A stretch of 34,172 bases of DNA from Chloroflexota bacterium (GTDB taxonomy: Bacteria > Chloroflexota > Limnocylindria > P2-11E), in assembly GCA_005889405.1 (NCBI GenBank), contig VBFY01000012.1:1-34172 (forward strand), read 5' to 3'. The position numbers and the translations under genes are program-made. Shown here piece by piece: positions 1 to 5,381 of this stretch (the stretch's first letter is position 1; each line of letters starts with the position of its first letter). The notes under the pieces were generated by a model. It made no database searches, was not told where the DNA came from, and was given only the letters and a program-made list of their open reading frames with translations.

Positions 1-168
1 ATGCGCGAGGTGCGGACAATCAGCAGGAAAGACCGGTCGTACGTGCGATCGGAATCCTCACAGGCCATACGCCGGACTCGCTTTACTAGCGAGAAGATAT
101 GGTCGGAACCCTGCGGCGACGTAGGGAGCCAGCGGGAACAAGAAACCAGCTGGCCTTGTAACAAAGAG
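1..168 (+). ncRNA. Group I self-splicing intron in 23S rRNA, 3' half
   Basis: These bases do not resemble 23S rRNA, although the exon that follows does. They fold as the 3' part of a group I intron. A Q-like segment lies at 18-31 (AATCAGCAGGAAAG). A fully self-complementary P6/P6a hairpin spans 33-52. J6/7 is CTCA at 57-60. The P7 strand GGCCAT (63-68) pairs with ATGGTC (99-104). P8 is CTCGC/GCGAG (77-81 with 89-93). J8/7 is AAGATA (94-99), the hallmark S element. P9 is CCCTGCG/CGTAGGG (109-115 with 120-126) capped by a GCGA tetraloop, and P9.1 is GCCAGC/GCTGGC (128-133 with 149-154). The last base before the exon is G168, as expected for omega-G. The order matches the Tetrahymena-type core. 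The 5' part (P1 to P5) and any intron-borne endonuclease gene lie outside the window. The short ORF that opens at base 1 is not a gene. Confidence 0.88.
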
Positions 169-462
<294 letters not shown>

Positions 463-925: not shown

Positions 926-1046
<121 letters not shown>

Positions 1047-2088: not shown

Positions 2089-2505
2089 GTGGGGGAGTAT
2101 CCAGAGCGCGTGCTCCGGCGCGTCGTGCCGGATCCAGTGCAGATCCAGATCATCCTCGGCTCGCTTCTCGGGGACGGGCGGCTCGAGGGCTGTGCGGGCG
2201 CGCGACGACTTCGCATCACGCATCACCAAGGCCGCGCTGAGTACGTCTGGTGGAAATACGAGCGCCTCGGCACGTTCGCGGCTCACGCGCCGCTGCTGCG
2301 TGGCGACCAGCTCGAGTTCCACACCATCGCGCATCCGGTCTTCGACGATGTCGCGCCACTCTTCGCGGGCTCCGATCGCAAGCGCGTCCGAGAGCTGCTC
2401 GCGCCGCTCGGTCTCGCGGTGTGGATGACGGACGTGGGGCGTCTGAGGCTGCGGGCCGAGGTGTTCTTGCCTACCCAGCGCGCAGCGGCGCTGGTCGCGA
2501 GTTAG
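2089..2505 (+). CDS. Short LAGLIDADG-type endonuclease relative
   Basis: The 138-residue product aligns with LAGLIDADG DNA endonucleases of the one-chain, two-motif type. The first motif is IILGSLLGDGRLE (about residues 21-33) with its catalytic Asp intact. The family segments RLRITHHQGRAEYVWWKYE and FHTIAHPVFDDVAPLF follow. The second motif LAVWMTDVG corresponds to the usual LAIWxMDDG but has Val where the catalytic Asp before Gly is expected. The protein ends about 30 residues later, whereas relatives are generally longer, with a second full alpha/beta domain half. It is therefore either a decayed homing endonuclease or a domesticated DNA-binding protein. The start GTG 2089 is the earliest sensible one; other starts are possible. 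The last bases overlap, tail to tail, the sigma factor gene on the other strand. A group I intron in the neighbouring 23S gene makes a link plausible but unproven. Confidence 0.75.
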   Translation: MGEYPERVLRRVVPDPVQIQIILGSLLGDGRLEGCAGARRLRITHHQGRAEYVWWKYERLGTFAAHAPLLRGDQLEFHTIAHPVFDDVAPLFAGSDRKRVRELLAPLGLAVWMTDVGRLRLRAEVFLPTQRAAALVAS

Positions 2506-3365: not shown

Positions 3366-5381
3366 TTACTCGATGACGTGGTTCCTTAGGGCTAGTACCA
3401 CCGCATGCGTCCGATCGGCAGCGCCGAGCTTCGCGATCAGCACCTGGACTCCCTTCTTGACGGTGTCCTCCGCGAGGACCATCGCGCGGGCGATCTCCTT
3501 GTTGGTGTAACCCTCGGCCATGTAGCGGAGCAGCTCGAGCTCACGCGGGGTCAGCGGCTCGTGTGTCGCTTCTCTCTCGGCCGATCCATTCGGGGCCGCC
3601 CCACTTGGCACGTTCGCCAACGTGCCTTTGGTCGCGCTCTCAGGCTCCACGGCCTCGATCCGCAGCGGTGTGAGTGGCTCGCCCGGCTCGCCGTGCGAGA
3701 TCGAGCTTGCTGCCTCGCGACCCAGGGCCACCAGACCTTCGACCGCGGCGTGGAGGGCGGCAATGACGCGGCTCGCCGGGGTGTCCTTGGAGACGTACCC
3801 GTTGCCGCCGGCGCGGAGCACCGCGCGGATGAGCTCCGGGCTCCTATCGATGCTGAACGCGACGATCGGGAGAGCCGGCGCCTCGGCGCGGAGTCGCACG
3901 ATCGCCTCGGCGCCATCGGCGTCCGGCAAGTGCAGATCGCAGAGCACGACGTCCGGCTGCGCCTCTTCGAGGAGGCCGATCGCCTCGCTGCACGTCGCCG
4001 TGAGACCGACGACGATCAGCCCTTCGCGCTCCAGGAGCGCGCGGACGCCGAGCTGCATGACGGGGTGGTCCTCCACCGCGAGGACGCGCAGGACCGCTCC
4101 ACGCTCGTGTCGCATCTCGGCGCGCCCCAGCAACGCGAGCGTGTCCGCGGTGCGCTGGGCGACGGCAGCCTCGTCCGCCTCGTACGGTGGGTCGTGGCGC
4201 GCGAAACCGACGCCCGTCGCGCCGGCGACCTCTGTGCTTCCGCCCTGCTCACTTGCGGAGAGGGCCGCCGCCCGGCACTCGGGGTCATCGTCCGGGGCGT
4301 AGACCGCCAGCACCTTGCCAGATGCGCTCCGCACCGCGACGGCGTGATGGCCGAGCGACTCGGCCGCGGCGCGCGCCGCACCGTGGGCGTCGCCTGACGC
4401 CACTGCGAGAGCCACGTCGGCGAAACCCTCGGCGTGTTCGCGTTCCTGCTGGAGCGCGGATATCACGTTCATCGCCTGCAGGGCGCGTGAGAGATCGGCC
4501 GCGATGCCCTCAAGGAGCGTCTGCCGGCCGGCGAAGCCGTCGGCCTCCTGCGGGCGCTTGACGCTGAGCACGCCAAGCACATCGTCTCCGACGCGCAGCG
4601 GCACCGAGATGGACTCAAGCGCGTCGGGATCCACGCCGTGGAACCGCTCGTCGGTCACGCGTCCCCGGAGCACGACCTTTTCTCCGCTCGTCGCGACCCA
4701 GCCGGCGATCCCCTCGTCGAGACGCTGGCCGCGACCCAGACGGACCTCGCTCGGGAGGCCCACGGATGCCCGCAACCGGAGCTCGTCCCCCTCGATGAGC
4801 ATGATCGAAGAGGCCCCGGCCCCCATTCGGCGCGCCACCTCGGCCGCTGCGCGCGCCAGGACCGCGCTGGCGTCGCGAGCGTCCACCAGACCCTCACCGA
4901 TCCCGCCGAGCACGTCCAGGCGCTCGTCCAGCTCGGTGGCGCGGCGCTGCGCACCGACCAGGTCTCTGCCGTCGGCCGCCATCATCGCGAGCAGCTGCGC
5001 GGCGGACGTCGCCGCGACGACGTCGAGGGCGTCGAACGGCATCTCGCGCCGCAGCGCGACGAGCACCGCGGGCCCGTTCCAGGTCTCGATCGGCGCGACC
5101 ACCGCGAAGGCGGCTTCCTCGCCCCACCGTCCGGATGGAACCGACACCGCGAACGCGCCCCCTGCTGCGCGAGCGAAGGCGTCCTCGCCGAGGATCGCGT
5201 GCCAATCGGCATCCTCGATCCGATGTGAGAAGACGGTGGAGGGGGGATCGGCGGTGGCAACGACAACAGCGACCGCTTCCGCCCGGAGCAACCAGGCTAG
5301 ATGTTCGAGTCGTTTCGGCCAGCGCGCCGTCGAGTTGACGGTGGGCCTCCTCGCTCCGGTTTGCCGGATTGTATGTGGCAC
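3366..5381 (-). CDS. GAF-receiver-LuxR hybrid response regulator
   Basis: About 671 residues with the order GAF-like sensory region, receiver, LuxR-type HTH. Residues 20-135 form a diverged GAF-like stretch, and 160-305 a clear GAF domain (ARRMGAGASSIMLIEGDE ... LDEGIAGWVATSGEKVV ... VPLRVGDDVLGVLSVKRP). The segment 310-425 may be a further small sensor segment. The receiver (430-550) has acidic pair E437/D438, phospho-acceptor D482 (VLCDLHLP) and K532 (YVSKDTP). The HTH (608-670) contains LTPRELELLRYMAEGYTNK and IARAMVLAEDTVKKGV. No histidine kinase domain is present. The GTG at 5381 is used; an ATG at 5411 is in frame but would overlap the start of the divergent S1 gene. A much longer open frame to 6212 runs antisense to the S1 gene and is not used. 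The likely output is DNA binding, possibly at the palindromes downstream. Confidence 0.82.
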   Translation of the reverse strand: MPHTIRQTGARRPTVNSTARWPKRLEHLAWLLRAEAVAVVVATADPPSTVFSHRIEDADWHAILGEDAFARAAGGAFAVSVPSGRWGEEAAFAVVAPIETWNGPAVLVALRREMPFDALDVVAATSAAQLLAMMAADGRDLVGAQRRATELDERLDVLGGIGEGLVDARDASAVLARAAAEVARRMGAGASSIMLIEGDELRLRASVGLPSEVRLGRGQRLDEGIAGWVATSGEKVVLRGRVTDERFHGVDPDALESISVPLRVGDDVLGVLSVKRPQEADGFAGRQTLLEGIAADLSRALQAMNVISALQQEREHAEGFADVALAVASGDAHGAARAAAESLGHHAVAVRSASGKVLAVYAPDDDPECRAAALSASEQGGSTEVAGATGVGFARHDPPYEADEAAVAQRTADTLALLGRAEMRHERGAVLRVLAVEDHPVMQLGVRALLEREGLIVVGLTATCSEAIGLLEEAQPDVVLCDLHLPDADGAEAIVRLRAEAPALPIVAFSIDRSPELIRAVLRAGGNGYVSKDTPASRVIAALHAAVEGLVALGREAASSISHGEPGEPLTPLRIEAVEPESATKGTLANVPSGAAPNGSAEREATHEPLTPRELELLRYMAEGYTNKEIARAMVLAEDTVKKGVQVLIAKLGAADRTHAVVLALRNHVIE

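What the first reader, a model, noticed from the sequence alone, without database searches (positions are those of the whole stretch)
1..168. Group I intron inside the 23S rRNA gene
Seen: the sequence before the 23S exon is unrelated to rRNA and forms P6, P7 (GGCCAT/ATGGTC), P8, J8/7 AAGATA, P9 with a GNRA loop, and a terminal G. Known: this is the 3' half of the group I catalytic core. Bacterial 23S introns are known but uncommon, and annotation tools often miss them or shorten the 23S gene.
Basis: partly seen in the sequence, partly recalled or inferred. Interest (0 to 1): 0.85.

Follow-up and report, generated by a model that had tools for sequence, protein, structure and literature searches.

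The report
Self-splicing intron in 23S rRNA gene
[quoted passage not shown] it is a real and tidy example of a known kind.

Summary
Confirmed. Window 1-168 is the 3' half of a group I intron; the 23S 3' exon starts at T169 (E. coli U2605), so the insertion site is L2604, two bases from peptidyl-transferase base A2602. The contig begins inside the intron, so the 5' half and 5' exon cannot be read in this genome. They are readable in two close relatives, G003 (Chloroflexi CF_147) and G025 (Chloroflexi CF_84), which carry the complete 301-307 nt intron at the same site, 87-93% identical to the window, while sister species G001 and G002 are uninterrupted there. P7, P8 and P9 show strong covariation across 34 L2604 introns (97% of cells paired, 156 double changes against 42 in shuffles). 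In the relatives the intron guide tracks the 5' exon: GCTGTT with AACAGT, GCTGTC with GACAGT. The site is not new: Tsurumaki et al. 2024 describe insertions at 23S position 2604 in CPR bacteria. A GTDB scan adds Omnitrophota, Actinomycetota, Armatimonadota, Chloroflexota and others. Splicing itself is inferred, not shown. Verdict: a genuine, ORF-less new member of a known intron class. It lies in a family whose rRNA genes also carry introns at L1931, L1951 and L2500.

The parts
1..168 (+). [quoted passage not shown]
   Evidence: Rfam; 87-93% identity to complete introns in G003 and G025
20..25 (+). P4 3' strand (TCAGCA); partner TGCTGG is readable only in relatives
33..52 (+). P6a hairpin (33-39 with 46-52)
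   Evidence: sequence; flanks conserved and loop variable in relatives
63..68 (+). P7 5' strand GGCCAT (guanosine-binding helix)
   Evidence: helix 1, 99% of cells paired, 2 pairs with compensatory changes
71..76 (+). P3 3' strand GCCGGA; pairs with TCTGGC in the relatives' 5' half
77..93 (+). P8 hairpin (77-82 with 88-93)
   Evidence: helix 2, 6 of 6 pairs covary
94..98 (+). J8/7 (AAGAT)
   Evidence: near-invariant columns
99..104 (+). P7 3' strand ATGGTC
109..126 (+). P9 hairpin with GCGA tetraloop (GNRA)
   Evidence: helix 3, 99.6% of cells paired, 6 of 7 pairs covary
128..154 (+). P9.1 hairpin (128-133 with 149-154)
   Evidence: sequence; conserved in relatives
168..168 (+). terminal guanosine (omega-G), 3' splice site
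   Evidence: sequence; E. coli mapping
169..462 (+). 23S rRNA 3' exon, E. coli 2605 to the end
   Evidence: 96% identical to uninterrupted G002 over 169-629
929..1045 (+). 5S rRNA of the same operon
   Evidence: 89.3 bits

Best explanation
The window begins inside a group I intron that interrupts the 23S rRNA gene after E. coli position U2604. Shown: the sequence, its position, the conserved 3' half of the catalytic core, its covariation, and full-length homologues at the same site. Inferred from group I biochemistry: in the precursor rRNA the guide (GCUGUU in relatives) pairs with the end of the 5' exon (AACAGU, with U2604 in the U.G pair). An external guanosine bound in P7 attacks after U2604, the freed exon attacks after omega-G168, and the exons join to restore an intact peptidyl-transferase loop, releasing an intron of about 300 nt. 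The intron of the relatives has no reading frame for a homing enzyme, so it cannot home by itself now. It was probably acquired horizontally and has lost, or never had, a LAGLIDADG_1 gene like those of other introns at this site.
For: Rfam group I hits in the window and full-model hits in G025 and G003. Junctions map to E. coli 2604/2605. The intron in G003 and G025 aligns with the window through to the splice site. Uninterrupted sisters show the empty site AACAGTTCGGTC. Covariation of P7, P8 and P9. Guide/exon matching: 61 of 63 GACAGT exons have a GCTGTC guide, and both AACAGT exons have GCTGTT. 61 of 66 L2604 insertions carry the same P7-J8/7-P7' signature.
Against: No RNA data, so splicing is not demonstrated. 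The window's own 5' half and 5' exon are missing. All close members are metagenome-assembled genomes.
Confidence: 0.95

Rival explanations
1. Assembly chimera: a group I intron fragment from another organism or locus was joined to the 23S 3' end.
For: Base 1 is a contig end, and rRNA regions often break or misjoin in metagenome assemblies; the G000 bin has no other 16S or 23S fragment.
Against: The same junction occurs in two other genomes, G003 and G025, inside longer contigs with both exons. The break is inside the intron, not at the intron/exon junction. A downstream gene matches the genus.
Confidence: 0.02
2. Broken, non-functional rRNA copy with a dead intron.
For: Only the 3' part is visible; no RNA data.
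Against: 3' exon intact to the end, followed by 5S; 96% identity to G002; intron core and covarying helices intact; only one 23S 3' exon found in the genome.
Confidence: 0.03
3. An RNase III-excised intervening sequence (IVS) rather than a group I intron.
For: Bacterial 23S IVSs are common.
Against: IVSs sit at variable hairpin tips (general knowledge); this sits in a highly conserved stretch of domain V and has P3-P9, J8/7, omega-G and a guide.
Confidence: 0.005

Closest known systems
CPR 23S insertion at position 2604 (Tsurumaki et al. 2024, PMC11270868; listed among positions 1917, 1931, 1952, 2593, 2604, 2657 = 23IS6-8 and 12-14)
   Same: Same E. coli position, and CPR introns at this site share the core sequence and structure
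   Different: Host is Chloroflexota, not CPR; no LAGLIDADG_1 gene; extra P2-like domain between P1 and P3 (seen in the relatives); guide changed to match the family's altered exon (G2599 to A)
Group I introns at L1931 in the same family and order (G001, G003, G028) and in other bacteria
   Same: Same core type; window matches G001's L1931 intron at 77-82% over parts
   Different: Different site; G003's copy encodes LAGLIDADG_1
L2500 introns of the same family and order (G001, G016, G018, G021, G025, G028)
   Same: Introns in domain V of the same gene; G025's copy encodes LAGLIDADG_2
   Different: Different site, and no match to the window intron in the DNA searches

Membership tests
Group I intron | Conserved core helices P3-P9 with J8/7 | tested here: met
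   3' half in the window; complete in G003 and G025; covariation
Group I intron | P7 guanosine-binding helix with compensatory changes | tested here: met
   UA to CG and AU to GC exchanges
Group I intron | Intron ends in G; 5' exon ends in U paired with a guide G | tested here: met
   G168 in the window; the U.G pair can be read only in relatives
Group I intron | Guanosine-dependent self-splicing | not testable with these tools
   needs RNA
L2604 23S intron (CPR type, 23S position 2604) | Insertion after E. coli 2604 | tested here: met
   E. coli rrlH coordinates; empty sites
L2604 23S intron (CPR type, 23S position 2604) | Sequence relationship to CPR members | tested here: met
   shared core motifs; window clade placed with L2604 introns of Actinomycetota (96/90), tree weak overall
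L2604 23S intron (CPR type, 23S position 2604) | Encodes LAGLIDADG_1 endonuclease (common, not required: ORF-less copies are described) | tested here: not met
   longest stop-free stretch in the complete relatives is 58 codons; the window's half is only 168 nt

The most novel reading that the evidence does not exclude
L2604 is a widespread group I intron site well outside CPR (Actinomycetota, Omnitrophota, Armatimonadota, Chloroflexota and others), where the published CPR survey called several of its 23S sites unreported in known bacteria. In this Chloroflexota/Actinomycetota branch the intron may have moved between L1931/L1917 and L2604 and then retuned its guide to a changed exon.
Probability: 0.4. 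Interest if true: 0.45.

Novelty: new member of a known kind. Interest (0 to 1): 0.33.

Why it matters
It adds a soil phylum to the hosts of an intron that sits beside A2602 in the ribosome's catalytic centre. In relatives it shows guide and exon changing together, which predicts that the intron is still under selection to splice. In practice, the complete 23S genes of this Chloroflexota family and order are 3.3-4.0 kb and carry one to three introns, so annotation, PCR and read mapping of rRNA will misjudge these bacteria.

Tried and rejected
Looked for the missing 5' half, other 23S and 16S pieces in the window's genome: none; the contig simply ends. A tree of 75 intron cores had only 95 columns; the deep order of sites (L1917, L1931, L2604) is unresolved, so no direction of transfer is claimed. 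Of 116 stretches matched by the exon pattern, 40 were only 23S variants without an insert (many of them DPANN archaea with TTGTAT) and 11 could not be judged; both sets were left out. A first P7 regex was wrong (18 of 65) and was corrected. Literature search for 'L2604' plus intron found nothing relevant; the site appears in PMC11270868 written as a number.

Full report
WHAT IS THERE. The window is one whole contig (G000:C23, 34,172 bp) of a 3.05 Mb assembly in 114 contigs. From base 169 to 462 it carries the 3' end of a bacterial 23S rRNA gene, followed by a 5S gene at 929-1045. Bases 1-168 are not rRNA. Rfam's group I intron model matches bases 1-126 as a 5'-truncated hit (24 bits; E = 1.7e-4 for the 175-nt search, 0.0057 for 6 kb). 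The score is below the 50-bit gathering cut-off because the 5' half of the intron is off the contig.

POSITION. Mapping to E. coli rrlH (L043) puts T169 at position 2605, so the last 5' exon base should be U2604. In E. coli the stretch reads ...GAGACA(2602)GU(2604)|U(2605)CGGUC (printed), so the insertion lies two bases from A2602 of the peptidyl-transferase centre.

THE MISSING HALF. The genome has no other 23S or 16S fragment that could be found, and the complete relative intron finds only the known place in it. Their introns are 307 and 301 nt, score 58.3 and 61.5 bits over the whole Rfam model, and align to the window through to the splice site. The window half is 93% and 89% identical to them over the core blocks and 87% to G025 over the whole overlap. 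The intron sits between 23S exons in both. Sister species G001 and G002 and six others of the family have the uninterrupted AACAGTTCGGTC. Among 177 species of the class, 45 show an empty site, 2 an interrupted one, and the window is the third; the rest had no readable site.

STRUCTURE AND COVARIATION. On an alignment of 34 L2604 introns (window, two relatives, 31 from the wider scan) I counted the structure P7-P8-P9 read from the window: 97.1% of cells paired (shuffles 72.6 +/- 1.0), 14 of 19 pairs with changes on both sides, 156 doubly changed cells (shuffles 42), covariation score 0.683 (shuffles 0.194; slid versions at most 0.10). The shuffles do not correct for relatedness, but the slid controls keep it, and P8 and P9 each have 6 covarying pairs.

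SPLICE-SITE GUIDE. In G025, P1 is AACAGU|UC paired with GAGCUGUU. The family's 23S has A instead of G at 2599 (AACAGT against GACAGT), and the intron guide differs to match: GCTGTT with AACAGT (2 of 2), GCTGTC with GACAGT (61 of 63). The intron bases just before the guide can pair with the 3' exon (P10), 4 bp in G003 and 6 bp in G025. This is good indirect evidence that the intron splices. Splicing itself was not tested.

HOW WIDESPREAD. With the window added, 61 of 66 carry the same core signature. Record titles include CPR/Patescibacteria, Omnitrophota, Actinomycetota (Solirubrobacterales, Acidimicrobiaceae), Armatimonadota, Chloroflexota, Dadabacteria, Deltaproteobacteria, Margulisbacteria and a Methylococcaceae genome. 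Nearly all are MAGs, in which rRNA contigs can be mis-binned. About two thirds of the insertions are 690-900 nt long, and those examined have open frames of 150-230 codons; the window clade and about a quarter of the others are short (under 400 nt) and ORF-less.

WHAT IS KNOWN. Tsurumaki et al. 2024 (PMC11270868) report LAGLIDADG_1-encoding insertions at 23S positions 1917, 1931, 1952, 2593, 2604 and 2657 of CPR bacteria, note ORF-less copies at the same sites, and state that group I introns at 23IS9, 10, 11, 13 and 14 were unreported in known bacteria. Reading 2604 as 23IS13 is my inference from the order of their list. So neither the class nor the site is new; the host phylum for this site is, as far as the held literature goes.

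FAMILY CONTEXT. The same Chloroflexota family and order carry further 23S introns: L1931 (G001, G003, G028), L1951 (G001) and L2500 (G001, G016, G018, G021, G025, G028). G003's L1931 copy encodes LAGLIDADG_1 and G025's L2500 copy encodes LAGLIDADG_2. In a weakly resolved tree the window clade groups with L2604 introns of two Actinomycetota (96/90) inside a larger set that mixes L1931, L1917 and L2604 (95/89), compatible with movement between sites but not proof of it.

VERDICT. The finding is a solid new member of a known kind.

Noticed in passing
window 2089-2505 (+): Free-standing LAGLIDADG_2 gene (E = 6e-15) downstream of the rRNA operon. Homologues lie downstream of the 23S on the same contig in many family members (G001, G002, G003, G009, G010, G013, G016, G018, G020, G022). 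The first motif (GSLLGD) is kept, but in the four free-standing copies aligned the second reads WM(T/A)DVG or WLTDLG, losing the second acidic residue of the WFMDDG form. This suggests a domesticated relic rather than an active endonuclease.
   Followed up: partly
L001 1481-1759 (G000:C70, the window's genome): Group I intron (77 bits) of about 206 nt in the anticodon loop of tRNA-Arg(CCT), missed by a normal tRNA scan.
   Followed up: partly
L034 about 4075-4328 (G028:C26): About 250-nt insertion near position 790 of the 16S rRNA gene, with group I-like motifs; not reported by Rfam at the gathering score.
   Followed up: partly
L032, L033, L034, L035: 23S genes with two or three group I introns each (among L1931, L1951, L2500, L2604), some with LAGLIDADG genes.
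   Followed up: partly
L091 (Acidimicrobiaceae MAG), intron at L2604: Short intron with what looks like a decayed start of a LAGLIDADG gene in the P6 region, consistent with gene loss from a homing intron.
   Followed up: no
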